From Alcanivorax sp. S71-1-4 (lineage in GTDB: Bacteria > Pseudomonadota > Gammaproteobacteria > Pseudomonadales > Alcanivoracaceae), in contig NZ_AQOR01000013.1 in the NCBI RefSeq assembly GCF_009846755.1, positions 1 through 64,000 of the forward strand: a stretch of DNA of 64,000 bases, in the 5' to 3' direction. Position 1 is the first letter of the stretch. Every line of letters begins with the position of its first letter. The notes beneath the pieces are model-generated. The model made no database searches and was not told the DNA's origin. It saw nothing but the letters and a program-made list of their open reading frames with translations. The position numbers were made by a program, and so were the translations under genes. Below are positions 15-28,071 of the stretch, piece by piece.

Positions 15-20
15 CGCACC

Positions 21-13420: not shown

Positions 13421-13533
13421 GGTCGGACGTCTGACGTCGGACGTCTGACGCTTAAAACAAATGAAGACAGGCAGTGGCGGGCGGGTGTCCGTCCTGTCTT
13501 TTGCGTCCGACGTCAGACGTCCGACGTCAGACC
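13421..13533. repeat. Inverted-arm element of alternating heptamers (copy 1)
   Basis: A left arm (13421-13451) and a right arm (13503-13533), each 31 bases, flank a 51-base core. The left arm is GGTC followed by alternating GGACGTC and TGACGTC units; the right arm is the inverted counterpart. The arms can pair in more than one register because the two heptamers differ by one base. A second copy with near-identical arms but an unrelated 99-base core is at 27260-27420. It occupies the gatB to crotonase intergenic region. Confidence 0.9.
13464..13502 (+). terminator. Candidate Rho-independent terminator of gatCAB
   Basis: AAGACAGG (13464-13471) pairs with CCTGTCTT (13493-13500) around a GC-rich 21-base loop and is followed by a short T run. 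It lies inside the core of the heptamer element. The loop is long and the T run short, so termination strength is uncertain. Confidence 0.5.
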
Positions 13534-13552
13534 ATCCACCGAGGCCACCAAC

Positions 13553-14377
13553 ATGTCCGACACGCCCATCACCTTCCGGCAACGCGTCACGATCCAGCGT
13601 ACCGACACCGGCATCGCCTATGTGCACCTGGCCCGCGCGGAAAAATACAACGGCCTGGACCTGGACATGCTCTACGCACTGGTCGAGGCCGCCAAAAGCC
13701 TGCGCAAGGATCGCAGCGTGCGTGCCGTGATCCTGCAGGGCGAAGGCAAGGCATTCTGTGCCGGCCTGGATTTCGCCAGCGTCATGAGCAAGCCGCTCGG
13801 CATCCTGCGCGCCTTCGTCAAGTGGGGCGGGCGCAGCACCAATATCTTCCAGCAGGCATGCTGGGCCTGGCGCACCCTGCCCGTGCCGGTGATCGCCGTG
13901 ACCCACGGGCACTGTTTCGGCGGTGGTTTACAGATCGCACTGGCTGCGGACTTCCGCTTCACCACGCCGGATTGCGAATTCTCGGTGATGGAAATCAAAT
14001 GGGGCCTGATCCCGGACATGACCGGCAGTGTCACGTTGCGCGAGCTGGTGCCACTGGACGTGGCCAAAGCGCTGACCATGACCGGCCGCATTATCGATGG
14101 CGAAGAAGCGTTGCACCTGAACCTGGTCACCGGTGTCAGCGACACCCCGCTGGCCGAAGCTGAAGCCCTGGCGCAGGAATTGCTGACCCGCTCACCGGAT
14201 GCGCTGGCTGCCACCAAACAGTTGTTTCGTGAGACCTGGCAGGCCCCGGAAGACGTCGCGTTCGATGTGGAAAGCAAACTCCAGTTCCGCCTGCTGCGCG
14301 GCAAAAACCAGCGCCGCGCCATGCAAGCCGCCCGCAAAAAAGAACCCGCCCGCTTCCTGCCACGCCGTTTCGGATAA
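13553..14377 (+). CDS. Crotonase/enoyl-CoA hydratase family protein
   Basis: A 274-residue crotonase-fold enzyme acting on an acyl-CoA thioester in the cytoplasm. Both oxyanion-hole blocks are present: KAFCAGLD (66-73) and GHCFGGGLQIALAADFRF (119-136). Acidic residues in VMEIKWGLIPDM (Glu147, Asp155) could serve catalysis, but the exact hydratase Glu pair is not clear, so hydratase, isomerase or another crotonase reaction remains open. The basic C terminus (RRAMQAARKKEPARFLPRRFG) is distinctive of this subgroup. No neighbouring beta-oxidation genes. Confidence 0.9.
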   Translation: MSDTPITFRQRVTIQRTDTGIAYVHLARAEKYNGLDLDMLYALVEAAKSLRKDRSVRAVILQGEGKAFCAGLDFASVMSKPLGILRAFVKWGGRSTNIFQQACWAWRTLPVPVIAVTHGHCFGGGLQIALAADFRFTTPDCEFSVMEIKWGLIPDMTGSVTLRELVPLDVAKALTMTGRIIDGEEALHLNLVTGVSDTPLAEAEALAQELLTRSPDALAATKQLFRETWQAPEDVAFDVESKLQFRLLRGKNQRRAMQAARKKEPARFLPRRFG

Positions 14378-14388
14378 GACAGTGCGCC

Positions 14389-14583
14389 GTAGGGTGGGTA
14401 GAGCCAAAGGCGAAACCCACCGGGACCATGCCGCACACTGCTCGCACAAAACCAGCGGAACTACCCACCTCCGAAGCAGGGCAGTTTCGACGCTTTTGCG
14501 GGAAGGGCAGTTTCGATGATTTTGTGGGAGTGAATACCGGGCATGGACGTGGTGGGTTTCGCCTTTGGCTCTACCCACCCTAC
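14389..14583. repeat. Dispersed terminal-inverted-repeat element, copy B
   Basis: 195 bp bounded by GTAGGGTGGGTAGAGC and its inverse. The inverted match runs through a further CAAAGGCGAAACCCACC, making arms of about 33 bp, with a partly matching CCATG beyond. Inside are GCTCGCACAAAACC and TTTTGTGGGAGTGA, which are inverted relative to each other. It starts 11 bases after the crotonase stop and is the one complete copy between genes in the same direction. Confidence 0.92.
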
Positions 14584-14721
14584 TCAAACCTCGACCTGGC
14601 TCACGTTTTCGGGGGGTGTGTCTGCTTTACTGACATATCGCGGCGGCATACTCTGCCTGTGGGAGCGCGCCCGGGGGCTTGTTGGCGCGTTCGTTTTCCG
14701 GGGGAAAAACGGAGTCAATCA

Positions 14722-15504
14722 ATGCTGTCCATCGTGGAACCCACCAGCGGTTTCTCCGCACTGGTCCGGCAGTACAAACGCCTGGCCCGTGAACTGATGC
14801 AAGACCTGCCACTCGACGGCGAACCGCTGCACCTCGCCGCCACCGACAACGCCTTTACCCATGGCATGGACCCGTCGCGCACTTACCTGATCAAAGGCGG
14901 CATGCTCGGCATGGAGTGCCAGCGGCGCCGCCTGCTGACCTGGGACGAAGGCGATCTGGTGCTGCCGGACGCCTCCGGCGAAGGCATCCGCTACCACGCT
15001 GACAGCGCCGTGCTGTTGCTCGGTTTTGATACTCTGGCACTGGTGCGCACCTTGCTGCGTGACGAACAGCGCGCACGCCTGTGGACACAACTGCTGATGA
15101 CCCAGCAGGGCATGCTGGTGCGCCTGCTCGCGGCACAGATAGAGGAAGGCCCGCACACCACACCGGGCTTCGCCTATTTCCAGCCGGGCGATGAAATCAT
15201 TCGCCAGGGCGACAATGCCGATTATGTGTTCAGCCTGTTCGAAGGCGAAGCAGACGTGCTGGTGGACAATGTCGTCGTCGGCCACGTCAGCGAGGGCGAG
15301 GTGCTGGGCGCGCTGGCGCTGCTGACGCAATCACCCCGCACCGCGACCGTGCGCGCGAACACCCGCTGTGCGGTCGTGAAAGTGCCGAAAGACCAGTTCC
15401 GGCAATTGATCCGTTCCAACCCGTCGATGATTCATGGTTTGCTCACCGACATGGCGCGGCAGATCGTGCAGCTGAATAATCAAGTGGTCGCCCTGTCGGG
15501 CTGA
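14722..15504 (+). CDS. Cyclic nucleotide-binding domain protein (C-terminal domain)
   Basis: A 260-residue protein with an uncharacterised N-terminal half (about residues 1-140) and a C-terminal cNMP-binding domain: YFQPGDEIIRQGDNADYVFSLFEGEADVL, then GEVLGALALLTQSPRTATVRA as the phosphate-binding cassette. The usual GE-A-L glutamate position reads GALALL, so cyclic-nucleotide binding may be weakened. No helix-turn-helix follows. The ATG at 14722 has GGAG seven bases upstream. It ends 14 bases before phzF, so co-transcription is likely. Confidence 0.85.
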   Translation: MLSIVEPTSGFSALVRQYKRLARELMQDLPLDGEPLHLAATDNAFTHGMDPSRTYLIKGGMLGMECQRRRLLTWDEGDLVLPDASGEGIRYHADSAVLLLGFDTLALVRTLLRDEQRARLWTQLLMTQQGMLVRLLAAQIEEGPHTTPGFAYFQPGDEIIRQGDNADYVFSLFEGEADVLVDNVVVGHVSEGEVLGALALLTQSPRTATVRANTRCAVVKVPKDQFRQLIRSNPSMIHGLLTDMARQIVQLNNQVVALSG

Positions 15505-15518
15505 AACGGAACCGGAAC

Positions 15519-16331
15519 ATGGATTACTACCATATAGACGCCTTTACCCATCACTTGTTTGGCGGCAATCCCGCTGGCGTGGTGCCCCTGGCCACCTGGT
15601 TGCCAGACGCACAGATGCAACGCATCGCTGCAGAAAACAACCTGTCCGAAACCGCCTTTTTTGCGCCGGAAGGTGATCACTATCGTATCCGCTGGTTCAC
15701 CCCCACCGTGGAGGTGGACCTGTGCGGCCACGCCACGCTGGCCAGCGCCTGGGTACTGTTCAATGCGCTCCGCTGCGACAGCGACAGCGTACAGTTCGAC
15801 TCCGCCAGCGGCAGGCTCACCGTGCACCGTGACGGCGACTGGCTGACACTGGACTTTCCGGCGCGCCCGCCCACCCCCGTGGCCCGTACTGCGAGTGTGG
15901 ACACCGTGCTCAAGGCCCTCGGCGTCACCGAGCCGCTTTATGTCGGTGCGGCGCGCGATCTGGTGGTCATGCTGCCGGACGAAGCGGCTGTGCGCGCACT
16001 GCAGCCGGATTTCGCCCTGCTCGGCACCGTCCGTGACTGGTTCGCCGTCACCGTCACCGCACCGGGTGCCGAGGCGGATACCGATTTTGTCTGCCGCTTC
16101 TTCGCCCCCGTGCAGGGCCTCGACGAAGACCCGGTGACCGGCTCCGCGTTCTGTACCCTGATCCCGTTGTGGGCCGCACGGCTGGGCCGCACCGCGCTGC
16201 GCGCTCGTCAGGTTTCCGCCCGGGGCGGTACCTTGCGCTGTGAACTGCTCCCGGACAACAGGTCCCCGGAACGGGTACATATCAGTGGCCAGGCAGTGTG
16301 CTATCTTCATGGCCGGCTCAACATCGACTGA
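15519..16331 (+). CDS. PhzF family isomerase
   Basis: A 270-residue member of the PhzF/diaminopimelate-epimerase fold family. The N-terminal half has GGNPAGVV and NLSETAFF with the catalytic Glu44; CGHATLA and the C-terminal DPVTGSAFC loop are also present. PhzF itself isomerises DHHA in phenazine synthesis, but most family members, including this one with no phenazine genes nearby, have unknown substrates. It closely follows the cNMP-binding gene. Confidence 0.92.
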   Translation: MDYYHIDAFTHHLFGGNPAGVVPLATWLPDAQMQRIAAENNLSETAFFAPEGDHYRIRWFTPTVEVDLCGHATLASAWVLFNALRCDSDSVQFDSASGRLTVHRDGDWLTLDFPARPPTPVARTASVDTVLKALGVTEPLYVGAARDLVVMLPDEAAVRALQPDFALLGTVRDWFAVTVTAPGAEADTDFVCRFFAPVQGLDEDPVTGSAFCTLIPLWAARLGRTALRARQVSARGGTLRCELLPDNRSPERVHISGQAVCYLHGRLNID

Positions 16332-16371
16332 CCCACATCATTCCTATTCCATCCGACAAGGAGGTTTGCCC

Positions 16372-16914
16372 ATGTTCCGCTTTGTTCTTGCCAGCGCGCT
16401 GTTCGCGCTGAGCCTCGCCGCGCACGCTGCGGGGCTGACCCAGGATAGCCTTGATCGCTGGATGGCCGCCGCCGCAGAGGGCGAAGCCTGGTCCGACGCC
16501 CATCCCGAAGCCGAAGAGTTCGGCGGGCACATCACCCCGCAGGGCGGCTCACTGCGTGAGCAGATGATCCAGGCGGTCAACGAACACCCGGAAGCCTCCC
16601 GCATTCTGCGGCGCCACGGTTTCAACAGCGAACAATGGGCCGACACCACCATCAAGGTGATGAACGCCTACAGCGCCCTGGAATTCGACGCCTCCGGCAC
16701 CGATGCCCAGTCCATGCAATCCGGGCTGGCCGAGGCACTGGCAGAGCTGGAAAAAAATCCGAATATCCCCGCCGAGCAAAAGCAGATGCTTCGCCAGCAG
16801 TTGGCCCAGAGCCAGGCATTCATGGGTGAACTCGACAACCAGGCACCGGAAGCCGACAAGGCACTGGTGAAGCGCAACAAGGCGCGCCTGGACCGCCTGT
16901 TCGAAGAGGAATAG
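16372..16914 (+). CDS. Small exported protein of unknown function
   Basis: A 180-residue protein with a clear signal peptide (MFRFVLASALFALSLAAHAA, cleavage after AHA). The mature part is helical and rich in Glu/Gln/Ala, ending in a charged tail (RLDRLFEEE). I recognise no family. The start at 16372 is fixed by AAGGAGG seven bases upstream, one of the best Shine-Dalgarno sites in the window, suggesting strong translation. Confidence 0.85.
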   Translation: MFRFVLASALFALSLAAHAAGLTQDSLDRWMAAAAEGEAWSDAHPEAEEFGGHITPQGGSLREQMIQAVNEHPEASRILRRHGFNSEQWADTTIKVMNAYSALEFDASGTDAQSMQSGLAEALAELEKNPNIPAEQKQMLRQQLAQSQAFMGELDNQAPEADKALVKRNKARLDRLFEEE

Positions 16915-16949
16915 CCCCCATCCGCGCAGGTACCGCCCCGCACGGCCTG

Positions 16950-18056
16950 GTGCTGGCCGGCGGGGGGCATACCCACGCCCTGCTGCTCAGCCAGGGCCCG
17001 TTGCCCGGGCCCGTGACCCTGGTGTCACCGGCCCGCTTCACCCCCTACTCCGGCATGCTGCCCGGTGTGGTGGCCGGCCACTACCACAGCCGTGAAGCCC
17101 ATATTGATCTGGCCGCGCTGTGCCAGCGTTGCGGCGCGACCTTTATCGAACAGGCCGCCACCGGCATTGATCGCGCCGGCCGGCATCTGTTGCTGGACGA
17201 TGGCCGCCGCCTGCCTTACCACCTGTTGAGTCTGGACATCGGCGCCCAACCGGCGCTGGCCACGGTGCCCGGCGCCCGCGAGCACGCCGTGGCCGTCAAG
17301 CCGGTATCCGGGTTCCTTGCCCGCTGGCAGCGTCTGCTGGCCACCCTGCCCCGGCTACCGCACCCCTTGCGCCTTGCCGTGGTCGGCGCTGGCGCCGGCG
17401 GCACAGAAATGGCCCTGGCGATTGCCCATGTGTTACGCCAGCAGCAGTTGCCTGCCCAGCTGTCGCTGTTCAGCGCCAGCAGCCTGCTGCCGGGCTACCC
17501 GCCCGGCGTGCGCCGGCGCATGCAACGCGCCCTGGATCACTACGGTATCGCCCTGCACACCGAGACGCCGATCCAGCGCGTGACCGCCACCCATCTTTAC
17601 GGCGAGGACGCACACTCCTACCCGCACGATTTCCTGCTCTGGTGCACGGGCGCCGTCGGCGCCGCCTGGCCCGGCGACAGCGGCCTGTCCGTCACCGATA
17701 GCGGCTTCGTGCGAGTGCAGGACACCTTGCAAAGCCTCAATGACCCTGCGGTGTTCGCCGCCGGGGACTGCGCCTGGCCGGAACCCGGTCCGGTGCCACG
17801 CGCCGGGGTCTACGCCGCACGCCAGGCACCGGTGTTGCGGCACAACCTGATCGCGGCCTGGCGAGGCAGACCATTGCGACACTGGCGCCCGCAGCCACAC
17901 TTCCTGTCGCTGCTGTCGGCCGGCGAGCGCTACGCCACCGGCAGCCGGGGCCGGCGGCTGTCTGCCGGCGGCCGGTGGTTATGGCATGTGAAAGACCGCA
18001 TCGACCGCCGCTTCATGGCGCGCTTCCCGGCCATGGCTACTCCCCCAGAGGCGTAA
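16950..18056 (+). CDS. FAD-dependent pyridine nucleotide-disulfide oxidoreductase (NDH-2/SelD-associated type)
   Basis: A flavoprotein of at least 368 residues with two dinucleotide-binding folds: AGGGHTHALLL at the very N terminus (FAD) and VVGAGAGGTEMALAIA near residue 145 (NAD(P)H), plus VFAAGDCAWPE near the C terminus. It resembles the NADH-dehydrogenase-like module that is fused to SelD in some bacteria; PYSGMLPGVVAGHY and EAHIDL are typical. The only canonical start (GTG 16950) would cut the first beta strand. Upstream, in frame, an ATC at 16920 with AGAGGA nine bases before it would restore it. It overlaps ectD by 20 bases, tail to tail. Confidence 0.82.
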   Translation: MLAGGGHTHALLLSQGPLPGPVTLVSPARFTPYSGMLPGVVAGHYHSREAHIDLAALCQRCGATFIEQAATGIDRAGRHLLLDDGRRLPYHLLSLDIGAQPALATVPGAREHAVAVKPVSGFLARWQRLLATLPRLPHPLRLAVVGAGAGGTEMALAIAHVLRQQQLPAQLSLFSASSLLPGYPPGVRRRMQRALDHYGIALHTETPIQRVTATHLYGEDAHSYPHDFLLWCTGAVGAAWPGDSGLSVTDSGFVRVQDTLQSLNDPAVFAAGDCAWPEPGPVPRAGVYAARQAPVLRHNLIAAWRGRPLRHWRPQPHFLSLLSAGERYATGSRGRRLSAGGRWLWHVKDRIDRRFMARFPAMATPPEA

Positions 18057-19056
18057 AGCACTCGTACATATCCAGCGGCTTGATCCCGCCCGCCGGCCGA
18101 CCAGGGTGCTGCGCCGAATCCGCCCGCGTCGCGAGAAAACGCGGCCGCGGCGGCCGGCCACAGTACGGCGCCACAGGGGCGTTATCGATGCTGTTGTAGA
18201 CGAAAAAAAGATTCGAGCGTGGCCAGGGCGACATATTGCGGTTGGAGGCATGCAATACATTGCACTCGAACAACAGCAACGACCCGGCCGGCCCTTTCGG
18301 AGCGCGGATGCCGCCGTCCCGGGACAGCTTCGCCAGCGCCTGCTGCGGCGGCACGCCAAGCTGCTGCGCCTGCAATGACCGGCGCCAGTGACGCTCCGGC
18401 GTGCTGCCCTGGCACGGAATGAAATACTGGTGCGAGCCGGGAATCAGCATCAACGGCCCATTGAATTCGTTGTTGTCGGTCAGCATCAGCGACGCATTGA
18501 CGGCACGCATGCGCGGCATGCCGTCTTCCATATGCCAGGTTTCAAAATCCGAGTGCCAGTCAAAACCGCTGCCCTGAAAACCATACTTGTCGTTCACCCG
18601 CGACTGGTGGATATACACCTCACCACCCAGCAACTGACGTACCATGCCGAGAATGCGCGGGTCGCGGGTCAGCCGGTCAAAACGCGCCGACAGTTCATGC
18701 ATGGCAAACACCGAGCGCAGTTCGCCACTTTCCGGATCACGGATCACCTGATCCGAGTCCATCAATGCGCTGTCGCGCGACAAGGCCAGCAGCTCGTCAA
18801 AAAAAGGCTCCACCCGTTCGCGGGAAAAAAAGCCCTCGAACCACAAAAAACCATCACGTTCATAATGAGACAACGCCACTTCATCAAGCGGGCCATCCCA
18901 GCGTTGCTGGTAACGGGCATGCACCACCGGTTCACGCCGGGGAAACATGGCAGGCAGATCAGCGGCGCGGGCAAAGCGTGAAGGATAGGGATCCGCAGGC
19001 ACCGGACGGGGCATTTCGTCCTTTACCGGCACTTCGGCGGTGGGGATAGCTGACAT
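18037..19056 (-). CDS. ectD: Ectoine hydroxylase (Fe(II)/2-oxoglutarate dioxygenase)
   Basis: Converts ectoine to 5-hydroxyectoine. The 339-residue protein carries the EctD signature almost unchanged: iron ligands His168 and Asp170 in DWHSDFETWHMEDGMPRMRA, distal His269 in ECNVLHASN, and the 2-oxoglutarate Arg280 in PWPRSN; FNGPLMLIPGSH is also typical. The ATG at 19056 is chosen because AGGAGA lies seven bases upstream. ectA, ectB and ectC are not in the window, so the enzyme is encoded apart from synthesis genes or acts on imported ectoine. Confidence 0.93.
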   Translation of the reverse strand: MSAIPTAEVPVKDEMPRPVPADPYPSRFARAADLPAMFPRREPVVHARYQQRWDGPLDEVALSHYERDGFLWFEGFFSRERVEPFFDELLALSRDSALMDSDQVIRDPESGELRSVFAMHELSARFDRLTRDPRILGMVRQLLGGEVYIHQSRVNDKYGFQGSGFDWHSDFETWHMEDGMPRMRAVNASLMLTDNNEFNGPLMLIPGSHQYFIPCQGSTPERHWRRSLQAQQLGVPPQQALAKLSRDGGIRAPKGPAGSLLLFECNVLHASNRNMSPWPRSNLFFVYNSIDNAPVAPYCGRPPRPRFLATRADSAQHPGRPAGGIKPLDMYECFTPLGE

Positions 19057-19483
19057 GATCCGGTCTCCTGTCTGCAAGAAAATACACATAGGACAGGCTG
19101 TTGAAAGACAGCCTGCGCTGACGGCTCAATCAAGCCGCTTGAAAAAGTCTCAACGAGATTTTTTCAACATCCTGAAAAGGACGATGCCGGTCAGTCAGAC
19201 GCTGGCGTTGTCAGTCAGCACTTACCCGACCGGCCATCATCAGCGGAGCCACCTTGCCACGCTCTCTTCACGCGCGCAAACGCCACCCGGAACGCGCGCC
19301 TTGCTACCGCCGAAATGCACTGCACAAAAAACACTGTCCGCGCCGGATTTGACAATTTTTCACGCTTCACACCGGCGTGCTTCGCCCGCAAAAAAATGCA
19401 AAACCCCGGCCGACAATCCCGGCAGCGCAAAAGGGATATGCTAATGTCCCAGTCCATACCCCGAGCAACGAAAGGACGCTGCC
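19057..19483. other. Intergenic region between divergent ectD and PA2779-like gene, with hairpins
   Basis: 427 bases without a supported gene. AGGCTGT/ACAGCCT forms a small hairpin near 19095-19114. TTGAAAAAGTCTC-AAC-GAGATTTTTTCAA (19139-19167) forms a 13-bp stem with one wobble pair. A TTGACA at about 19347 has no good -10 at 17 bases, while TATGCTAAT at 19438-19446 could be a -10 for the plus-strand gene. No protein-coding signal was found. Confidence 0.5.
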
Positions 19484-19909
19484 ATGACGACCTCTTTCCG
19501 ATCGCACTCCCGCACCCGATCCGTTTTTGTCCGCCTGCTGGCGGTGCTGTTTGTGTCCATGCAGACGCTTCTCGTCCCTGCCGCGCACGCAGCGGTGACC
19601 GGGGCCGGCCAGGGCATGATCGGCACGGCAGAAGTACTGCAGCAGGAAAGCCGCGCTGAAAACGAAGCCCGCATTCACGCCGCGCTCGCCCGCGACGACG
19701 CCAGCAGTGCCCTGGAGCGTTTCGGCGTGGCGCCGGAACAGGTGGATGAGCGCCTGGACCGCCTGAGTGACAGCGAGCTGGCCAGCCTCGCCGATCAGGC
19801 CGAGGACCTGCCGGCCGGTGAAGGCGCCCTGGGCGTGCTGGTGTTTATTCTGGTACTGCTGATCATTCTTGATCTGCTGGGTGTCACCAACGTTTTCCCC
19901 GCCATCTGA
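19484..19909 (+). CDS. PA2779 family exported protein
   Basis: A 141-residue protein with an N-terminal signal segment (LLAVLFVSMQTLLVPAAHA), a short acidic helical middle and one C-terminal membrane helix (ALGVLVFILVLLIILDLLGV). This architecture matches the PA2779 family, whose gene is typically followed by a PA2778-type peptidase, as here one base downstream. Function is unknown; the pairing implies the two proteins act together in the envelope. AAGGA lies eight bases before the ATG. Confidence 0.85.
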   Translation: MTTSFRSHSRTRSVFVRLLAVLFVSMQTLLVPAAHAAVTGAGQGMIGTAEVLQQESRAENEARIHAALARDDASSALERFGVAPEQVDERLDRLSDSELASLADQAEDLPAGEGALGVLVFILVLLIILDLLGVTNVFPAI

Positions 19910-19910
19910 C

Positions 19911-20867
19911 GTGGCGCAACAGACCCGTTTGCCCACGCACCGGAAGAGCAGCCTGCGCGCTGCTCTTTTTTTGCCCGTCGCGCTGTTGCTGGGTGCCTGC
20001 CAGAGCCTGGCGCCCCTGGACAGCGACATGCCGGCTGCACAGCAGGTGCCGGACGTACCGTTTTTCCCGCAGGAAGCCTACCAGTGCGGCCCGGCGGCGC
20101 TGGCCACCGTGCTCGGCAGCGCGGGTGTGCCCGTGGATGACCAGGCCCTGGTGGATGAAGTGTGGCTGCCAGCACGCCGTGGCAGCCTGGCCATGGAACT
20201 GGTCGCCGCCGCCCGCGCCCGCGCGCGCCTGGTGTATCCGGTCAACACGCCGCAGGCGCTGCTGCAGCAACTGGAGGCCGGCCAGCCGGTACTGGTGATG
20301 CAGAATCTGGCCTTTTCCTTCTATCCGCGCTGGCATTTTGCTGTGGTCACCGGGTATCGCGACCGGGGCGCCACCGTGGTGCTCAACACCGATACCCGCG
20401 AAGCCGAACCGGAGAACTGGAACCGTTTTGTGCGCACCTGGGCACGGGCGGATTATCAGGGCTGGGTGGTAACACCGCCGGGTATTCTGCCGGCCGGCGC
20501 CCGGCCAGTGGCCCTGGTCCGCGCGCTGGAAGAACTCTCCGGCACTGCCGGCGCCAGCGCGGCCACCGCCTATTGGGACGCAGCCGGCGAACGCTTCCCG
20601 AACGACTATCTGGTGCAATTCGCCCTCGGCAATCACCGCTGGGCCGAGGGCCGTGCGCCGCATGCCATCGACGCCTGGCGCGCGGCCACCCGGGCCCGGC
20701 CGTCCGAATTTGCGGCCTGGCACAATCTGGCACTGGCTCTGGCCAGCCAGGGCTGTGACACGGCGAGCGCGCTGGACGGCGCCCGGCAGAGCGCCCCCGG
20801 CAGCGAGCGCCTGCAGCAACTGGAGCAGGCCGTCGCCGACACACCCGCCGGCGAAAGCTGCCTGTAA
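19911..20867 (+). CDS. PA2778 family C39-like cysteine peptidase lipoprotein with TPR-like tail
   Basis: A 318-residue predicted lipoprotein: the lipobox LLLGACQS puts the acylated Cys near residue 29. The N-terminal half is a papain-like C39 domain with Cys in YQCGPAALATVL, His in PRWHFAVVTGY and the following VVLNTDTRE. The C-terminal part contains helical TPR-like repeats (FALGNHRWAEGRAPHAIDAWRAA, AWHNLALALASQG). The GTG at 19911 is the start, giving a signal peptide of normal length and no overlap with the PA2779-like gene. Role in peptide or protein processing at the envelope is inferred. Confidence 0.87.
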   Translation: MAQQTRLPTHRKSSLRAALFLPVALLLGACQSLAPLDSDMPAAQQVPDVPFFPQEAYQCGPAALATVLGSAGVPVDDQALVDEVWLPARRGSLAMELVAAARARARLVYPVNTPQALLQQLEAGQPVLVMQNLAFSFYPRWHFAVVTGYRDRGATVVLNTDTREAEPENWNRFVRTWARADYQGWVVTPPGILPAGARPVALVRALEELSGTAGASAATAYWDAAGERFPNDYLVQFALGNHRWAEGRAPHAIDAWRAATRARPSEFAAWHNLALALASQGCDTASALDGARQSAPGSERLQQLEQAVADTPAGESCL

Positions 20868-20940
20868 CGGTTTGCAGACTGGCAGCGCCGGCGTTTTCTG
20901 CGATGATGGCCCGAGGTTGCCTTTGTCACAGGATCCGACA

Positions 20941-23900
20941 ATGAAATCAGGCTTTTCGTATCTGCTGTTGCTGCTCTGTGTGCTGTTCACCTTGCCCGCC
21001 ACTGCGGCAGACACTGACCTGCCCGGTATCGCCGATATCCAGCGCCAGATCGACAATCTCGGCGATCCGCAGTCGCTGGATGCGGACAAGATGGCCCAGC
21101 GCGATGAACTGACCCAGACCCTGCAATGGCTCAACGAACTGGCGGACAACGAAAAGCGCCAGCAACAGGTGGCTGAGAAGCTGGCCCGCGCGCCGACCGA
21201 GACATTGCGCCTGAACCGCGAACTCAGCCGCTTTACACCGAGCGATCCGGACGCCTTGCGGCGCGACTATGAAGCGCGCGACATCGACGCCCTGGTGGCA
21301 GAACTGATCAGCCTGCTGGAACGACAGGAACAGCTTCAGGAACAATTGTCCGACGCCACCAGCGAGGTCAGCAGCAACCAGATGCTGCCGGAGCGCGCAC
21401 AGAACGCGATTGCCGGCACCCTGGACGAACTGGAAGCCGCCCGCAGCACGCTGATCCAGCTCAACGTGCGTGACGATGCCCTCGACAATACGGCCACGCT
21501 CACCCGCCTGCGGGCGCAGATCGCGGCACTGAACAGCCGGCTGGAACTGCGTCGCATCGAACTGCAGGCCAACTCTGATCTGCAGACACTGGCCAGCCAG
21601 CAGGCCGCGTTGCTGCAACGCCGTATCGATGACGACGACACCCGCCTGGGCATCCTGCAATCGGTGCTGGAGCAAAAGCGCCAGGTGCGGACCCGCGCTG
21701 CGATTGAAGCCGCCAGCGAACAGATCGCCGCGTTGCCCGACAGCCCGTTGCTGCGTGACCAGCTGGCACAGAACCAGGCACTGGCCGAGCGCATGCTGAC
21801 CGTCACCGCACAGGTGAATGAACAACTGCGTGTGAACCTTCAATTGCGCAACCAGCTCGACAAAGTACGGCAACTGGAACGGTCGCTGACCGAACAGGTG
21901 GCTGCCCTGCAAGGCAGTCTGTTGCTGTCGCGCATCCTCTACCAGCAACAACGCCTGCTGCCCCGGCTGGATGACAGCGGCGTGACAACACCGGATATCG
22001 CCGAACTGCGCCTGGAACAGTTCCAGCTCACCGAGCAACGCGAAGCGCTGCTGGATACCCGGGCCGCCGCCGATCGCCTGCTGGCACCCGGCAGCCCGGC
22101 GGACAACGCCGACATTCGCGCGGCACTGCTGGCGCTGCTGAACGTGCGCAAGGAACTGTTGCAACAACTCGACCCGGAGCTGTCGCGATTGCTGACGCTG
22201 TCGATCAACGCCACCACCGCCCGCGCGCAACTGCAGGCGGCACGGCGCACAGCCCGCGACACCATCCAGGAACAACTGTTCTGGATGCCCAGCAGCCGCC
22301 CGCTGACGCTCAGCACGGTGCGCGAATTCCCCGGCACGCTGGCGGAGGAATGGCGCAGCCTGGTGCACAACACTTACTGGGCGCAGGCGCTGGAACGTTT
22401 TCAGGCGCGCTGGCCGGCGGTGGCGTTTGCCGCCCTGGTGGCACTGGTCTTGCTGTGGCGCCGGCGCAGCATCAAGGCACGCCTGAAAGCCCTGCACCAG
22501 GAAGTCGGTTTTCTGAAACAGGATTCACAACAACACACGCCGCTGGCCCTGTGGCTGACCGTGCTGCTCACCGCACCGCTGCCGCTGGTGCTGGTGACTC
22601 TGGGCCTGGTACTGCGCAGCGGGGAAGCGCCCGGCGCGGTACTGATCGGCGCCGTGCTGATGAAAGTGTCAATGATTGTGCTGGTGTTCGGCACCCTGCT
22701 GCGTCTGCTGGGCAAGGACAGCGTGATCACCCGGCATTTCCGCTGGCCGGCGGACAACGTGCGCCTGCTGCGCCGGCAAACGCTGTTCACCGCGCTGGCT
22801 TTCCTGCCACTGGGCATCGTCATCGCCATCGGCGAACGCGCGCCGGAGTTGCTGGCCAACGATGTGATCGGGCTGCTGGTCGTGCTGATCAGCGGGCCGC
22901 TGCTGGCCGTGCTGCTGTGGCGTCTGGCCGAGCATTACCCGAGCCAGCAGTCCGTGCGCCTGATGCGCTACACCACTATCGCCACAGTGGCGCTGTTACC
23001 ACTGATCCTCACCGTGCTGGGGGCACTGGGCTATTACTACACGGCGGTCCAGCTCGGTGGCCGGCTGGTAGACACCTTTTATCTGCTGCTGCTGTGGTTG
23101 CTGGTCGGCGCCACCGTCCGGCGCGGCCTGACGCTGGCTGCCCGCCGCCTTGCCTACCGCCGGGCACTGGCCCGGCGAGAGGAACAGCGCGAACAGAAAG
23201 CCGCCGCCGAGGCCGGCGAACAGGCCGAGGTGGTGGAAGAACCGCCGATGGACCTGGAGCTGGTCAATGCCCAGTCATTGCGGCTGGCCAATCTGTTTCT
23301 GCTGCTGGCGTTCGGTGTCGCCATCTACTGGGTCTGGGCAGACCTGATTGGCGCCATGTCCTACCTCAACAATGTCACCCTCTGGCAACAGACCGTCGGC
23401 GAGGGCGAACAGGCACGTCAGGTCAGCACCAGCCTCGGTGACGTGCTGTTTGCCATCCTGTTCCTGATTGTTGCGTTGATGATGGCGCGCAACCTGCCGG
23501 GGCTGCTGGAAGTCATGGTGCTGTCGCGGCTCGCACTGCGCCCCGGCAGTGCCTACGCGATCACGTCACTGCTGACCTATGTACTGACCGCCGTCGGTAT
23601 TGTCGTGTCCCTGGGCGCGCTGGGCGTGTCCTGGTCGAAACTGCAATGGCTGGTGGCAGCACTCGGTGTCGGCCTGGGGTTCGGCCTGCAGGAAGTGTTC
23701 GGGAATTTCGTCTCCGGCATCATCATCCTGTTCGAACGCCCGGTGCGCATCGGGGACCTGGTCACCATCGGCGACCTGTCCGGCACGGTCAATCGCATCC
23801 GGATCCGTGCCACCACCATTCGCGATTTCGACAACAAGGAGATCATCATTCCGAACAAGTCGTTCGTCACCGACCGGCTGATCAACTGGTCATTGAGCGA

Positions 23901-24258
23901 CAGCGTGACACGGCTGGTGATCCAGGTCGGCTTTGCCTACGGCAGTGATCTGGAACTGGCACGCAAGGTCCTGTTGCAGGCGGCCCGGGAAAACCCGCGC
24001 GTGATGCAGACGCCGGAACCGGTGGCCCTGTTCACGGCCTTCGGCGCCAGCTCGCTCGACCACGAACTGCGCCTGCATGTGCGCGAACTGGCCGACCGGG
24101 TGCCGGCCGGCGACGAACTGTTGCGGCGCATCGATGCACTGTGTCGTGAGCACGGTCTGGAGATCGCCTTCAACCAGCTGGACGTGTTCATCAAAAACAA
24201 GGAAGGCAACGAAATCGCCCTGCGCACCCGCCAGGACGGCGGCCCCGCCCCAGCATGA
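20941..24258 (+). CDS. mscK: Mechanosensitive channel MscK (KefA)
   Basis: A 1105-residue channel close to E. coli MscK (1120). A signal peptide (to TAADTD) is followed by a roughly 450-residue periplasmic coiled-coil region rich in Gln/Leu/Arg, about eleven membrane segments, and a C-terminal MscS module: pore helix, GLGFGLQEVFGNFVSGIIIL, RPVRIGDLVTIGDLSGTV and IPNKSFVTDRLINWS. It opens under membrane tension to release solutes in hypo-osmotic shock. The ATG at 20941 starts exactly at the signal peptide; the upstream open frame overlaps the peptidase gene and is not used. Confidence 0.95.
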   Translation: MKSGFSYLLLLLCVLFTLPATAADTDLPGIADIQRQIDNLGDPQSLDADKMAQRDELTQTLQWLNELADNEKRQQQVAEKLARAPTETLRLNRELSRFTPSDPDALRRDYEARDIDALVAELISLLERQEQLQEQLSDATSEVSSNQMLPERAQNAIAGTLDELEAARSTLIQLNVRDDALDNTATLTRLRAQIAALNSRLELRRIELQANSDLQTLASQQAALLQRRIDDDDTRLGILQSVLEQKRQVRTRAAIEAASEQIAALPDSPLLRDQLAQNQALAERMLTVTAQVNEQLRVNLQLRNQLDKVRQLERSLTEQVAALQGSLLLSRILYQQQRLLPRLDDSGVTTPDIAELRLEQFQLTEQREALLDTRAAADRLLAPGSPADNADIRAALLALLNVRKELLQQLDPELSRLLTLSINATTARAQLQAARRTARDTIQEQLFWMPSSRPLTLSTVREFPGTLAEEWRSLVHNTYWAQALERFQARWPAVAFAALVALVLLWRRRSIKARLKALHQEVGFLKQDSQQHTPLALWLTVLLTAPLPLVLVTLGLVLRSGEAPGAVLIGAVLMKVSMIVLVFGTLLRLLGKDSVITRHFRWPADNVRLLRRQTLFTALAFLPLGIVIAIGERAPELLANDVIGLLVVLISGPLLAVLLWRLAEHYPSQQSVRLMRYTTIATVALLPLILTVLGALGYYYTAVQLGGRLVDTFYLLLLWLLVGATVRRGLTLAARRLAYRRALARREEQREQKAAAEAGEQAEVVEEPPMDLELVNAQSLRLANLFLLLAFGVAIYWVWADLIGAMSYLNNVTLWQQTVGEGEQARQVSTSLGDVLFAILFLIVALMMARNLPGLLEVMVLSRLALRPGSAYAITSLLTYVLTAVGIVVSLGALGVSWSKLQWLVAALGVGLGFGLQEVFGNFVSGIIILFERPVRIGDLVTIGDLSGTVNRIRIRATTIRDFDNKEIIIPNKSFVTDRLINWSLSDSVTRLVIQVGFAYGSDLELARKVLLQAARENPRVMQTPEPVALFTAFGASSLDHELRLHVRELADRVPAGDELLRRIDALCREHGLEIAFNQLDVFIKNKEGNEIALRTRQDGGPAPA

Positions 24259-24268
24259 CCCCATGGCC

Positions 24269-24437
24269 GTAGGGTGGGTAGAGCCAAAGGCGAAACCCAC
24301 CATGTCCATGCCCGTTATCCACTCCCGCAAAATCATCGAAATCACCCGGCTTGGGAGGTGGGTAGTTCCGCTGGTTTTGTGCGAGCAGTGTGCGACATGG
24401 ACCCGGTGGGTTTCGCCTTTGGCTCTACCCACCCTAC
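24269..24437. repeat. Dispersed terminal-inverted-repeat element, copy C
   Basis: 169 bp, the shortest complete copy, with the same 33-bp inverted ends. The core blocks are in the opposite order from copy B (ATCCACTCCCGCAAAATC left, TTTTGTGCGAGCAGTG right), so it is inserted in the opposite orientation. It fills the space between convergent mscK and the ABC permease, 10 bases after one stop and one base before the other. Confidence 0.92.
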
Positions 24438-24438
24438 G

Positions 24439-25199
24439 TCACCGTTTAAGGCGGTAGCCGGTACGGAAAATCCACCAGATCACCAGCACACAGGCCAGCA
24501 TGAAGGCCACTGTCATGCCGAAGCTGACCACCACGTCCACATCCGAAACGCCGTAGAAACTCCAGCGGAAACCACTGATCAGGTACACCACCGGGTTGAA
24601 CAGCGTGATCTTCTGCCACAGCGGCGGCAGCATGCTGATCGAATAGAAAGTGCCGCCCAGGAAGGTCAGCGGCGTCACCACCATCAGCGGGATGATCTGC
24701 AGCTTTTCAAAGCCGTCTGCCCAGATGCCGATAATGAAGCCGAACAGGCTGAAGGTGACCGCTGTGAGGATCAGGAACGCCACCATCCATACCGGGTGCT
24801 GTATCTCGAACGGCACAAATAACCGCGCCGTCAGCAGGATCAGCAATCCCAGCATCACCGACTTGGTCGCCGCTGCACCGACATAGCCGATCACCACTTC
24901 CACATAGGACACCGGCGCTGACAGCACCTCATAGATGGTGCCCGCGTAGCGCGGCATGTAGATGCCGAATGACGCATTGGAAATGCTCTCGGTCAGCAGC
25001 ATCAGCATGATCAGGCCCGGCACGATAAAGGCGCCGTAGCCGATGCCGTCGATTTCCACCATGCGCGAGCCGATGGCGGAACCGAACACGATGAAATACA
25101 GCGAGGTGGACAGTACCGGCGAGGCGATGCTCTGCATCAGTGTCCGGAACGTGCGGGCCATCTCGAACCGGTAAATGGCGCGGATCGCATAACGGTTCA

Positions 25200-25200
<1 letters not shown>
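24439..25200 (-). CDS. ABC-2 type transporter permease (YadH-like)
   Basis: A 253-residue inner-membrane protein with six predicted membrane segments and the ABC-2 permease hallmarks ([44 protein letters not shown]). With the preceding ATPase it resembles E. coli YadG/YadH, an exporter of unknown substrate. Its ATG overlaps the ATPase stop by one base (TGATG). The gene ends one base from repeat copy C. Confidence 0.92.
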
Positions 25201-26144
<944 letters not shown>

Positions 26145-26159
26145 ACGTCCTCCTTATGA

Positions 26160-26615
26160 TCATGCACTGTCCCGCAGCGCCTGCGGGGTCGGCAATTCGG
26201 TATTCTGCACTGCCGAGAGCCACCAGCGCCCGTCCCGCCGCACCATCACGTACAGGCTGCGGCAGGCCCGCGCGCCGCTGAGCGGCTGGCCACGCTGATC
26301 CAGCGGCTCCTGCACCAGATGCACCAGCGCCGCGTCCGGGGCCGGGAAGCGGATGTGCTCGATGCTGTAGCGGGCACGCAGTTCGCGCAAGGGCCCGTCA
26401 AACAGACTCTTGCGTGCCTCAAAGATGCGGTACCAGCCTTCGAGCACGACCCCGGCCGGGTCGACCCAGACCGCGTCGCGGGTGACGTCGCGGCAGACGC
26501 GTTCGGCGTCCTTGCGATTGAACGCCTGTTCCATCTCCAGCACAAACTGTGTCAATTCCTGAGTATCGGTATGTTCAGAGGCCAACCTGATACGGGCTTC
26601 CGGACGGTTCAACAT
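26160..26615 (-). CDS. SnoaL-like / NTF2-fold protein, first of the ABC exporter operon
   Basis: A 151-residue single-domain protein of the cone-shaped NTF2/SnoaL fold: the helix FVLEMEQAFNRKDAERVCRDVTRDAVWVDPAGVVLEGWYRI and later strands ending in WWLSAVQNTELPTP are typical of the SgcJ/EcaC-type subgroup. The ATG at 26615 is preferred over one 15 bases upstream because GAGGGG sits between the two. Only 15 bases separate it from the ATPase, so it is probably co-expressed with the exporter. Substrate or ligand unknown. Confidence 0.82.
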   Translation of the reverse strand: MLNRPEARIRLASEHTDTQELTQFVLEMEQAFNRKDAERVCRDVTRDAVWVDPAGVVLEGWYRIFEARKSLFDGPLRELRARYSIEHIRFPAPDAALVHLVQEPLDQRGQPLSGARACRSLYVMVRRDGRWWLSAVQNTELPTPQALRDSA

Positions 26616-26713
26616 ACTCCCCTCCATCAATGTACGGATTGCCTGATCCTGTCAGATCCAGTCCTGATCGCCGCGCAGTCTGGAACATCAAGCCTGCTTG
26701 AGGTCAACCGCGC

Positions 26714-26760
26714 ACGACCACAGCAGGACGCCCCGTCTGCGGGCGTCTTGCTGTGGTCGT
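26714..26760. terminator. Long GC-rich hairpin between two SnoaL-like genes
   Basis: ACGACCACAGCA pairs with TGCTGTGGTCGT, and GACGCC with GGCGTC inside it, giving a stem of about 18 bp with a single bulge region. No long T run follows on either strand, so it may be a processing or attenuation site rather than a simple terminator. The rest of the 263-base gap (26616-26878) has inverted pieces such as AGTCA...TGACT near 26790 but no gene. Confidence 0.5.
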
Positions 26761-26878
26761 TCGGGATGCCGGAAATTCGACAGGGTGACAGTCATACCAT
26801 GAGTGACTGACGTGTCCTGTCAGGATATGTCAGCGCGACAGGCCGCCGTTGGCAGTGGGCCACGGCGGCACGCCTGCA

Positions 26879-27232
26879 TCAGGCGTAATGTGCGTAGGCG
26901 CGACACACCAGGTGGCGTTCATTGAAGAAAAACACTTCGGCGGCCATGCCGGAGGTACCGTGGTAATACAGCGTCACACTGTCGGTGCCGACGAGAATAT
27001 CCTGCAGCTCGAAATGCAGGTTGGGCAGCAGTTTCAGCGCCTTGCCCCAGTAGGCACCGACCGCGTCCCTGCCCTGCAGCGTGCCGGAGGGCTCATCGGC
27101 AATCTGCACGATACGCGGCGAGGACATGCTGAAATCCTCACTGTAGTGGGACAGGATGCGTCCCAGGTCATGGCTGTTCCAGGCATCGATCCATTCGCGG
27201 GCAAAATGCTCCGCCTGCTCTCGTGTGATCAT
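26879..27232 (-). CDS. SnoaL-like / nuclear transport factor 2 family protein
   Basis: A 117-residue NTF2-fold protein (HFAREWIDAWNSHDLGRILSHYSEDFSMSSPRIVQIA...) of the SnoaL-like group, ending VFFFNERHLVCRAYAHYA. The pocket pattern is typical, but the family is catalytically diverse, so no reaction is assigned. The ATG at 27232 has AGAGGGG directly upstream; the longer frame reads through the heptamer repeat and is rejected. The repeat element lies 27 bases upstream, where its promoter would be expected. Confidence 0.85.
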   Translation of the reverse strand: MITREQAEHFAREWIDAWNSHDLGRILSHYSEDFSMSSPRIVQIADEPSGTLQGRDAVGAYWGKALKLLPNLHFELQDILVGTDSVTLYYHGTSGMAAEVFFFNERHLVCRAYAHYA

Positions 27233-27259
27233 GTTCCCCTCTTCTCCCTTGCTGAAAAG

Positions 27260-27420
27260 CGTCGGACGTCTGACGTCGGACGTCTGACGCAAAAAAACCA
27301 GAGGCGTGATACCCGAAGGTCCAGATGCCTGTCTCGGCATTCATGCACACCACCAGCACAACTGACATCACCAAAAGCTTCCCGGTTTTGCGTCCGACGT
27401 CAGACGTCCGACGTCAGACC
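27260..27420. repeat. Inverted-arm element of alternating heptamers (copy 2)
   Basis: Left arm 27260-27290 matches the left arm of copy 1 at 30 of 31 bases. Right arm 27390-27420 is identical to the right arm of copy 1 over all 31 bases. The 99-base core differs from that of copy 1. The right arm overlaps the last codons and stop of the unknown gene at 27400. Apart from this end overlap the element fills the gap between two genes on the minus strand. Confidence 0.9.
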
Positions 27421-28071
27421 TCTCGCTACCCCCCCCGCAAAGACTTTCGCAGCATCCCCCATCAATGCCACCAGTGTCTGGCTGTTGAGTGTTTCCTCAC
27501 GCAGCCGGTCAAACTTCTGTCGCAGCGTCAGCGCCTTGTCCAGCAGGCGGGCGCTGGCGGCCTTGTCGTCCACGTGGCGGCGCACCAGTTTCTCGAACTC
27601 GCGCTCGCCGCGCTCCATATTGTCCAGCATCAGTTCCAGCAGCCGCACCGGTGCAATGCGCAGCAGCTCGGTGTTGAGCGTGTACTCGGCGTGATGGCCC
27701 CGGCTTTTCAGAAAGTGCTCCAGCTCGCGTTGCTCGACCGGGTCTTCCAGTGCCACCGACACCTTGCCGCCCTCGAAGGTGGCCAGCACATCCTGCGCCA
27801 CCAGCCGCTGCACAATGCACCCCAGGACCGCCTTGCTGTTGATGTCCTCGTACTTGAGCGCCGATTCGAGCCGCAGGGAGCGGATACGGCGCTCGGGAAT
27901 GCGCAGCCGTGCCGCCAGTGCATAGGCGGACAGGCCCCGGTACTCGCCCCGCTCGCGCAGCAGGTGGAACACCAGCAGTTCCGTCTCGCGCTTGGTCATG
28001 CTGCCAAAACCGCCGGCCAGCCAGTGGTGCAGGAATTCTTCCGCGAATCCTTGCTGTTCCTCCGGGCTCAC
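27400..28071 (-). CDS. Hypothetical helical protein, winged-helix-like N terminus
   Basis: A 223-residue, mostly helical, charged protein that I do not recognise. An N-terminal stretch (ETELLVFHLLRERGEYRGLSAYALAARLRIPERRIRSLRLESALKY) looks like a helix-turn-helix or winged helix followed by long amphipathic helices. The start is a GTG at 28071 after AGGAGGGG. The last residues (GLTSDV) and the TGA are encoded by the right arm of the heptamer repeat, so the original C terminus may have been different. It lies 49 bases after the MsbA-like exporter gene. Confidence 0.7.
   Translation of the reverse strand: MSPEEQQGFAEEFLHHWLAGGFGSMTKRETELLVFHLLRERGEYRGLSAYALAARLRIPERRIRSLRLESALKYEDINSKAVLGCIVQRLVAQDVLATFEGGKVSVALEDPVEQRELEHFLKSRGHHAEYTLNTELLRIAPVRLLELMLDNMERGEREFEKLVRRHVDDKAASARLLDKALTLRQKFDRLREETLNSQTLVALMGDAAKVFAGGVARGLTSDV

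What the first reader, a model, noticed from the sequence alone, without database searches (positions are those of the whole stretch)
13421..27420. Two copies of an element with inverted arms made of alternating GGACGTC/TGACGTC heptamers around unrelated cores
Arms at 13421-13451, 13503-13533, 27260-27290 and 27390-27420 are 30-31 of 31 identical between copies, while the cores (51 and 99 bases) differ. The arms consist of two heptamers that differ by one base, each containing the palindrome GACGTC. Conserved arms around variable cores resemble a pair of mobile ends or paired protein-binding arrays rather than a simple hairpin.
Basis: seen in the sequence. Interest (0 to 1): 0.6.

Follow-up and report, generated by a model that had tools for sequence, protein, structure and literature searches.

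The report
Palindromic elements with seven-base-repeat arms
The window holds two copies of a small repeat found right behind genes in this group of marine bacteria, whose mirror-image ends are built from a seven-letter unit repeated about four times; it resembles known gene-end palindromes, and its seven-letter rhythm and inner A-rich box recur in a distant bacterium that uses a different unit.

Summary
Both window elements have 31-bp inverted arms of the heptamer KGACGTC (K = G/T; 30/31 and 31/31 identical between copies) around cores of 51 and 99 bp. The array occurs in 13 of 57 genomes searched (own included), 3 of 29 genera, all of one family (Alcanivorax, Alloalcanivorax).

In 136 fetched array groups, 75 are paired. 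Paired arms have strand polarity (left G/T 240 of 268, right C/A 244 of 271), mostly four units, and an inner A-box (AAA in 76 of 106 inner ends; control 4 of 106). They lie behind stop codons (median 8 nt; 43 nt from starts) and often supply the stop. The window cores are single-copy in the three genomes searched apart from sister-species orthologues; other cores form families.

Best reading: a REP/BIME-like extragenic palindrome built of heptamer arrays, changing in 7-bp steps, forming a strong 3' hairpin in mRNA. No RAYT association, MetJ or target duplication was found.

Closest precedent: inverted GGGAATC arrays of Xanthomonas (PMC4692102), which on re-examination carry a similar A-box. 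In 1.2 Mb from three genomes, on contigs known to hold some elements, adjacent arrays were inverted in 15 of 18 cases at period 7 and 0 of 19 at periods 4-6 and 8-13.

The parts
13421..13451 (+). Element 1, left arm: GGTC then KGACGTC units, variable letters G,T,G,T, ending GACGC; begins 4 nt after the gatB stop codon (13414-13416)
13452..13458 (+). Element 1, inner A-box of the left arm (TTAAAAC)
   Evidence: consensus
13464..13500 (+). Element 1, intrinsic-terminator-like hairpin inside the core (AAGACAGG ... CCTGTCTT, then TT)
   Evidence: a shorter overlapping terminator-like site; core fold z -3.56
13452..13502 (.). Element 1 core, 51 bp, one place in this genome; orthologous core in sister species G006
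13503..13533 (-). Element 1, right arm, inverted; ends 19 nt before the enoyl-CoA hydratase ATG (13553)
27260..27290 (+). Element 2, left arm (variable letters G,T,G,T); its outer end reads GCGTC instead of GGTC
27291..27389 (.). Element 2 core, 99 bp, one place in this genome; orthologous core in G006; inner ends AAAAAAACC and GGTTTT
27390..27420 (-). Element 2, right arm, inverted; read on the minus strand it supplies the last six codons (GLTSDV) and the TGA stop of the 223-aa ORF 28071-27400
11959..13416 (+). gatB (Asp/Glu-tRNA amidotransferase subunit B), upstream of element 1
13553..14377 (+). Enoyl-CoA hydratase/isomerase family gene, downstream of element 1
27400..28071 (-). 223-aa ORF without a Pfam match, upstream of element 2 in transcription order; its stop lies in the element
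26879..27232 (-). SnoaL-like gene downstream of element 2 (start taken at MITREQ; the longest ORF reaches into the element)
   Evidence: start choice is inference

Best explanation
A REP/BIME-like extragenic palindromic element: two inverted arms, each about four units of a 7-bp repeat, each with a short A-box on its inner side, around a spacer whose sequence is free to change. Shown: architecture, arm polarity, A-box, unit number, position behind stop codons, shared sites between sister species, a difference of whole 7-bp units at one site, chains of arrays and cores, homologous cores at unrelated sites. Inferred: arrays grow and shrink by 7-nt slippage; fold-back copying between arms keeps them alike; copies spread rarely by recombination or an unidentified enzyme and survive in the short gap between a stop codon and the next ribosome-binding site; in mRNA the element forms a long 3' hairpin that slows 3' exonucleases and, where the core holds a terminator, ends transcription.
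For: Chance excluded. Paired groups with exactly two arrays: left N = G/T 240 of 268, right N = C/A 244 of 271. Units: 106 of 162 arms in paired groups have 4. A-box AAA: 76 of 106 inner ends that begin GC, 4 of 106 when tested 20 nt further in, 4 of 124 outer ends; by genome 51 of 61 in the sister species G000 and G006 (not independent), 10 of 20 in G030, 15 of 25 in the rest. Position: stop-facing sides median 8 nt, 87 of 139 within -28..15; start-facing median 43 nt, 20 of 107; gene stop inside the array on 29 of 151 stop-facing sides. Orthology: 11 of 17 G000 loci match one of 29 G006 loci. One site differs by two whole heptamers and a variable letter, L117 vs L217. Array-core-array-core-array chain in L121 with homologous cores. 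RNA folding of element 1: -66.9 kcal/mol, z -7.2; element 2, minus strand: z -5.4. REP dimers with variable spacers, mostly 20-100 bp, lying close behind stops and supplying stop codons, are described in PMC3733652 (passages; section 15).
Against: Variable letters of the two arms are complementary in register in only 49 of 144 positions (36 elements), against a permuted mean of 63 (20 of 2000 permutations as low), so base-pair covariation is absent or even avoided there; the best of three registers is not enriched either (82, permuted mean 86.6). Inner ends do not pair in a locus-specific way (705 of 2000 permutations as good; 67 cores). No base-exact empty site was seen, so insertion itself is not demonstrated. 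The element set is biased: G000, G006 and G030 loci were taken mainly with a pattern containing the GCGTC inner end and from truncated listings; G000 and G006 share many sites. No RNA data exist here.
Confidence: 0.55

Rival explanations
1. Neutral simple-sequence repeats: heptamer microsatellites that arise by polymerase slippage, tolerated behind stop codons, with no selected function and no common ancestry as elements.
For: Heptamers are reported as over-represented long SSRs in many bacteria, and slippage at 7 nt has been proposed (statements about an earlier survey, seen only as cited inside PMC4679880 and PMC4692102). Array length differs at an orthologous site (L117/L217). Degenerate arms occur in G000 (L225).
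Against: Slippage alone does not give inverted pairs, arm polarity, a constant inner A-box or homologous cores at unrelated sites. Adjacent arrays were inverted in 15 of 18 cases at period 7 and 0 of 19 at periods 4-6 and 8-13, on contigs that were known to hold some elements.
Confidence: 0.2
2. Non-autonomous mobile element (MITE/REPIN type) moved in trans by a tyrosine (RAYT) or other transposase acting on the hairpin ends.
For: Patchy copy number (0 to 120 exact forward hits among species of the same genus). The same gatB|ech gap carries this element, a GACGCC variant, or unrelated GTAGGAGC-type palindromes in different species. Homologous cores occur at unrelated loci in G030 and G006. REPINs are precedent (PMC3116915, passages).
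Against: RAYT-type genes (PF01797) occur in 43 of 57 genomes, with and without arrays. None of 14 fetched neighbourhoods (about 2.5 kb or more on each side, less at contig ends, e.g. L183) holds an array, one two-mismatch 14-nt stretch in L175 apart; 11 of them are all PF01797 hits counted for G000, G006, G030, G018 and G023, and 3 are of the 4 in G013; 6 of 14 hold GTAGGAGC instead. No target duplication or base-exact empty site. No GTAG tag. Other transposase families were not searched.
Confidence: 0.25
3. Bidirectional intrinsic terminator with reinforced flanks: the core is the terminator, the inner A/T tracts are its U-tracts, and the arms extend its stem.
For: T-tract on the inner side of both arms. 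Element 1, L124, L274 and L043 cores are strong hairpins with T-tails. In L124/L228 the sister species has an unrelated terminator-like hairpin at the same site. Among single arrays, 10 convergent and 2 divergent placements.
Against: Only 11 of 55 (plus) and 13 of 55 (minus) cores fold with z below -1.5. The T-tract precedes the arm hairpin instead of following it, except in some single arrays. Elements sit inside apparent operons such as purH-purD and prfB-lysS (gene names recognised by eye, not searched). Paired elements occur in divergent gaps too (5 of 75).
Confidence: 0.2
4. Paired binding arrays for a chromosomal or regulatory protein that reads GACGTC every 7 bp.
For: GACGTC resembles the MetJ box AGACGTCT (recalled, from no call). 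Four-unit arrays and polarity would suit cooperative binding.
Against: MetJ is absent in 57 of 57 genomes while the E. coli control rings. The G030 gatB|ech element has GACGCC units and G030 uses several unrelated heptamers in the same inverted arrangement. The neighbours of the two window elements share no evident function. No other binding protein was tested.
Confidence: 0.1

Closest known systems
GGGAATC heptameric repeats of Xanthomonas (and GGGGA(C/T)T of Nostoc), PMC4692102
   Same: As reported there (sections 10, 15, 16 and passages read): heptamer arrays, four units preferred, 70 and 75 inverted pairs in two species, downstream repeats very close to or overlapping stop codons, majority between the same genes in sister species with length variation. 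Seen here in Xanthomonas sp. Leaf131: inverted pairs with an inner CG[C/T]AAAAGC-like box (AAA in 15 of 34 inner ends, inner control 2 of 34, outer 0 of 34) and 4 units in 17 of 34 arms.
   Different: Unit is GGGAATC, quadruplex-forming in vitro and not self-complementary; here it is KGACGTC, self-complementary and without GGG. So quadruplex formation cannot explain the plan in both. The strings AAAAGC and GCTTTT are not in that paper's main text; figures and supplements were not seen.
REP dimers / BIMEs with GTAG or CGTC tags, PMC3733652; REPINs, PMC3116915
   Same: Inverted palindromic pairs, variable spacers (mostly 20-100 bp), behind genes, termini supplying stop codons; CGTC type reported without its own transposase.
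   Different: Each half is a tandem heptamer array, not a unique 8-9 bp stem with a 4-5 nt loop; no GTAG tag; no AT-start stem and CCA-like tail after CGTC.
TAACTGA heptamer repeats of Beggiatoaceae, Cyanobacteria, Bacteroidetes, PMC4679880 (abstract and passages seen)
   Same: Dispersed short heptamer arrays, scattered taxonomic distribution.
   Different: Direct repeats (one inverted case), mostly just upstream of start codons.

Membership tests
GTAG REP / REPIN | Terminal GTAG tetranucleotide beside a hairpin | tested here: not met
   No GTAG in the window arms; GTAGGAGC repeats occur separately in relatives
GTAG REP / REPIN | RAYT gene flanked by the repeat | tested here: not met
   0 of 14 fetched PF01797 neighbourhoods hold an array
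GTAG REP / REPIN | Inverted pair with spacer, extragenic, behind genes | tested here: met
   75 of 136 groups paired; stop-facing median 8 nt
CGTC REP | Unpaired CGTC tag, stem of 8-9 bp starting with AT, loop 4-5, CCA-like tail (PMC3733652) | tested here: not met
   GCGTC is present at inner ends but is followed by NGACGTC and is part of the array
CGTC REP | No dedicated transposase | tested here: inconclusive
   No association with PF01797 genes; other transposase families not searched
Heptameric SSR in inverted pairs (Xanthomonas type) | Period 7, about four units | tested here: met
   106 of 162 arms of paired groups have 4 units
Heptameric SSR in inverted pairs (Xanthomonas type) | Inverted pairing near stop codons | tested here: met
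Heptameric SSR in inverted pairs (Xanthomonas type) | G-rich unit able to form quadruplex | tested here: not met
   Unit KGACGTC has no GGG
MITE | Target-site duplication and a cognate transposase | tested here: inconclusive
   15 G006 loci compared with G000; the gaps have diverged and no duplication is recognisable
Rfam RNA family | Match at gathering score | tested here: not met
   0 matches in the window

The most novel reading that the evidence does not exclude
There is a widespread class of 'heptamer-armed' palindromic elements in which the 7-nt period, about four units, inverted pairing, location behind stop codons and an inner box are kept while the heptamer sequence itself is replaced freely, between lineages (KGACGTC, GGGAATC) and within one genome (GACGYCK, AAGTTRA, CAAGCTK in G030). 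That would imply a process that measures seven nucleotides and copies one arm onto the other independent of sequence, for example fold-back repair synthesis or a terminal enzyme with a 7-nt step.
Probability: 0.3. Interest if true: 0.75.

Novelty: new variant of a known kind. Interest (0 to 1): 0.5.

Why it matters
Heptamers are reported as over-represented among bacterial simple repeats, and the paper on the Xanthomonas ones leaves their role open (PMC4692102). Here two gammaproteobacterial lineages with unrelated heptamers show the same element plan: about four units, inner A-box, variable core, inverted second arm (stop-codon position measured here for the Alcanivorax group, reported in that paper for Xanthomonas). 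That rules out quadruplex formation as the common cause of the plan and gives a concrete test: does the 7-nt period reflect slippage geometry, an enzyme, or selection on the mRNA 3' end? The family also supplies a natural series of sites with 7-bp length changes and interchangeable cores for measuring how such elements grow and decay.

Tried and rejected
Sequence strings of the arms in papers: one search found 0 papers; one search found 3, on fly, granulosa-cell and gastric-cancer topics; (Xanthomonas strings) 0; (Alcanivorax with palindromic and interspersed repeat) 0. Phage records: no match. Plasmids: 2 weak partial matches. Rfam: none. MetJ as binder: absent in 57 of 57. RAYT as mover: no association. 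Base-pair covariation between arms at the variable letters: not found, rather fewer in-register matches than permuted. Core as a structured RNA: only 11 or 13 of 55 cores fold well. Integron attC-like core ends (GCTTAAC ... GTTAAGC, motif recalled) were considered from the sequences and dropped because many core ends do not fit; no search was run. A solo-arm deletion model (arms recombining and dropping the core) fits 3 of 61 singles with outer-type ends on both sides, but 29 of 61 singles have inner-type ends on both sides and stay unexplained. Class-wide survey with GACGTCNGACGTCNGACGTC: 2 of 369 genomes including the own one, the other with two arrays on one contig. They include tandem arrays in Planctomycetota, Armatimonadetes, Streptomyces and others, many without the two-armed plan, so wide ancestry is not claimed. 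Inverted pairs in Planctomycetota (8 of 11 adjacent pairs at period 7, but also 1 of 3 at period 6) come from loci selected by the pattern and are not counted in the 1.2 Mb test; Parathalassolituus loci gave 0 of 1 at period 7.
Full report
WHAT IS THERE. The four arms are at the stated coordinates and far beyond chance (20 hits, 0.47 expected). Read from the outer end inward, each arm is GGTC followed by K GACGTC units (K = G or T) and ends in GACGC; the left arm of element 2 differs by one outer base. The cores are 51 and 99 bp.

GENOME AND RELATIVES. GACGTCNGACGTCNGAC occurs 47 forward and 45 reverse times in the 4.18 Mb genome (overlapping hits; backward control 0), and in 13 of 57 genomes searched (own included), 3 of 29 genera, all in one family; five species of the same genus have none and one (G006) has 120 forward hits. 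Contig lengths identify G023 as Alcanivorax hongdengensis A-11-3, G030 as Alloalcanivorax mobilis MT13131, G018 as Alcanivorax sp. DP30, G021 as Alcanivorax sp. DSM 26293 and G025 as Alcanivorax jadensis T9. The same two-armed plan was seen in a Spongiibacteraceae MAG (L302) and in Zhongshania aquimaris (L312).

ANATOMY. I examined 136 array groups from 128 loci of G000, G006, G030, G023, G013, G018 and single loci of seven others: 75 paired (two or more arrays within 200 nt) and 61 single. The G000, G006 and G030 loci came mainly from searches with the inner-end pattern and from truncated listings, so counts by type are not genome-wide frequencies, and G000 and G006 share sites. In paired groups with exactly two arrays the arms have polarity: left variable letters G/T 240 of 268, right C/A 244 of 271. 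Unit number is mostly four (106 of 162 arms of paired groups). Inner ends carry GACGC(T)AAAA(C): AAA starting within 5 nt in 76 of 106 inner ends that begin GC, against 4 of 106 when tested 20 nt further in and 4 of 124 outer ends; it is weaker in G030 (10 of 20) and G018 (9 of 16) than in G006 (39 of 46) and G000 (12 of 15). Outer ends are GGTC/GACC with pyrimidine-rich outside sequence. The two arms of one element do not show compensating changes at the variable letters (49 of 144 in-register matches, permuted mean 63), and the inner ends do not match each other beyond the common box.

PLACE. Gene calls used a codon-usage script, not a standard gene finder; starts overlapping an element were moved by rule. 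Sides facing a stop codon lie at a median 8 nt (87 of 139 within -28..15), sides facing a start codon at 43 nt (20 of 107); sides farther than 400 nt were left out of these two figures. In 29 of 151 stop-facing sides the stop falls inside the array, because the unit can read TGA. Element 2 gives the upstream 223-aa ORF its last residues GLTSDV and its stop. At the gatB|ech site the congeners G001, G003 and G005 have only 20, 21 and 35 nt between the genes, G002 has 70 nt with another hairpin, and the G004 contig ends there; G000, G006, G018 and G023 have the element, G030 has a GACGCC version with a 12-nt core, and some other species have unrelated palindromes.

HISTORY. Eleven of 17 G000 loci match one of 29 G006 loci, and both window cores have orthologous cores there and no other match in G000, G006 or G030. 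Seventeen G006 loci had no match; 16 were searched in G000 and 15 compared. None shows a base-exact empty site: three (L130, L139, L140) have no insert at the projected place but the flanks there differ too, and the rest have other sequence in the gap. One differs by two heptamers and a variable letter (L117/L217), one is decayed (L138/L225) and one has a different terminator-like hairpin in the same place (L124/L228). Elsewhere cores are homologous: G000/G006 share a family at several unrelated loci (L063, L126, L127, L128, L139), and in G030 a core with ATTGCGGCTACGCAA lies between repeat arms in 17 distinct copies of 20 motif matches (two matches are chance, inside genes; one is a copy counted on both strands), with GACGTC, GACGCC and, in L417, quite different arms (sorted by eye). 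Chains such as array-core-array-core-array (L121) fit exchange or slippage between arrays.

FOLDING. Element 1 folds as RNA at -66.9 kcal/mol (z -7.2) with 23 pairs between arms, offset by one heptamer, and a terminator-like inner hairpin; element 2 (minus strand only) z -5.4. But only 11 of 55 cores on one strand and 13 of 55 on the other fold better than z -1.5, so a terminator core is a minority feature.

TESTED CANDIDATES. RAYT-type transposases: present in 43 of 57 genomes with or without arrays; 0 of 14 fetched neighbourhoods hold an array, and 6 of 14 hold GTAGGAGC. MetJ: 0 of 57, E. coli control positive. Phages none, plasmids two weak hits. Other transposases and binding proteins were not searched.

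COMPARISON WITH KNOWN SYSTEMS. REP dimers share position, pairing, variable spacers and stop-codon supply, but their tags and stems are different (PMC3733652: abstract, passages and section 15; PMC3116915: passages). The nearest precedent is the GGGAATC heptamer system of Xanthomonas (PMC4692102; passages and sections 10, 15, 16). I searched the Leaf131 genome: 140 forward and 104 reverse GGGANTN triples, backward control 1 and 0. Twenty loci chosen by me from the capped listing gave 17 inverted pairs; AAA lies within the first positions of 15 of 34 inner ends, 2 of 34 in the inner control and 0 of 34 outside. The strings AAAAGC and GCTTTT do not occur in that paper's main text; figures and supplements were not seen.

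PERIOD TEST. On contiguous samples (399 kb of G030, 400 kb of G006, 400 kb of Leaf131) a detector of tandem arrays with the same match threshold at every period found adjacent arrays with inverted consensus in 7 of 10, 6 of 6 and 2 of 2 cases at period 7, and 0 of 19 at periods 4-6 and 8-13; period 14 (6 of 11) is the double of 7. These stretches were picked knowing that they held some elements, which favours the period-7 counts but not the absence at other periods. In G030 the pairs use several heptamers, and left and right arms match better than permuted (91 of 20000 permutations as good; 10 pairs). Control loci of relatives (181 kb) gave 0 of 2 at period 7 and one inverted pair at period 9, lying inside a GTAGGAGC composite, and selected Planctomycetota loci one at period 6, so period 7 is not an absolute rule.

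VERDICT. The feature is real and not sequence noise. It is best filed as a new variant of extragenic inverted palindromes, built from heptamer arrays like those of Xanthomonas but with a different, self-complementary unit. The strongest new point is the shared plan of two unrelated heptamer systems; what maintains the 7-nt period and how copies spread are not shown.

Noticed in passing
window 14381-14583: A 203-bp interspersed repeat with long inverted ends (GTAGGGTGGGTAGAGCCAAAGGCGAAACCCACC ...) between the ech gene and the cyclic-nucleotide-binding gene; about 78% identical to a stretch in G006 (L141) and similar to one near a G000 C11 locus (L229); apparently missing from the G006 orthologous site L119.
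   Followed up: partly
L186, L185, L179 (G013 and G018 RAYT neighbourhoods): Composite palindromes near RAYT genes: outer GTAGGAGC arms, then inner inverted arms with a period of about 9 (CCACAGAGGACACAGAG ... CTCTGTG) and an A-rich centre.
   Followed up: no
L479, L480, L482, L488 (G030, Alloalcanivorax mobilis) and L374 (Alcanivorax jadensis T9): A second heptamer class, AAGTTRA, in inverted pairs around cores of about 40-130 bp, often with GCGCGG-like inner ends.
   Followed up: partly
L309, L314, L347 (Planctomycetota MAG MGR_bin222): Inverted heptamer pairs with three different heptamers, each with a GACAGC- or AACAGC-like box at an inner end.
   Followed up: no
L286, L335, L339, L344 (Parathalassolituus penaei): GTCGGAC arrays embedded in tandem units of roughly 310-370 bp, with variant heptamers (GCCAGAC, GTCGGGC, GTCTGAA).
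   Followed up: no
G000:C13 near 12435 (L007): A run of about eighteen G just outside a left arm; G-rich left and C-rich right flanks are common around elements.
   Followed up: partly
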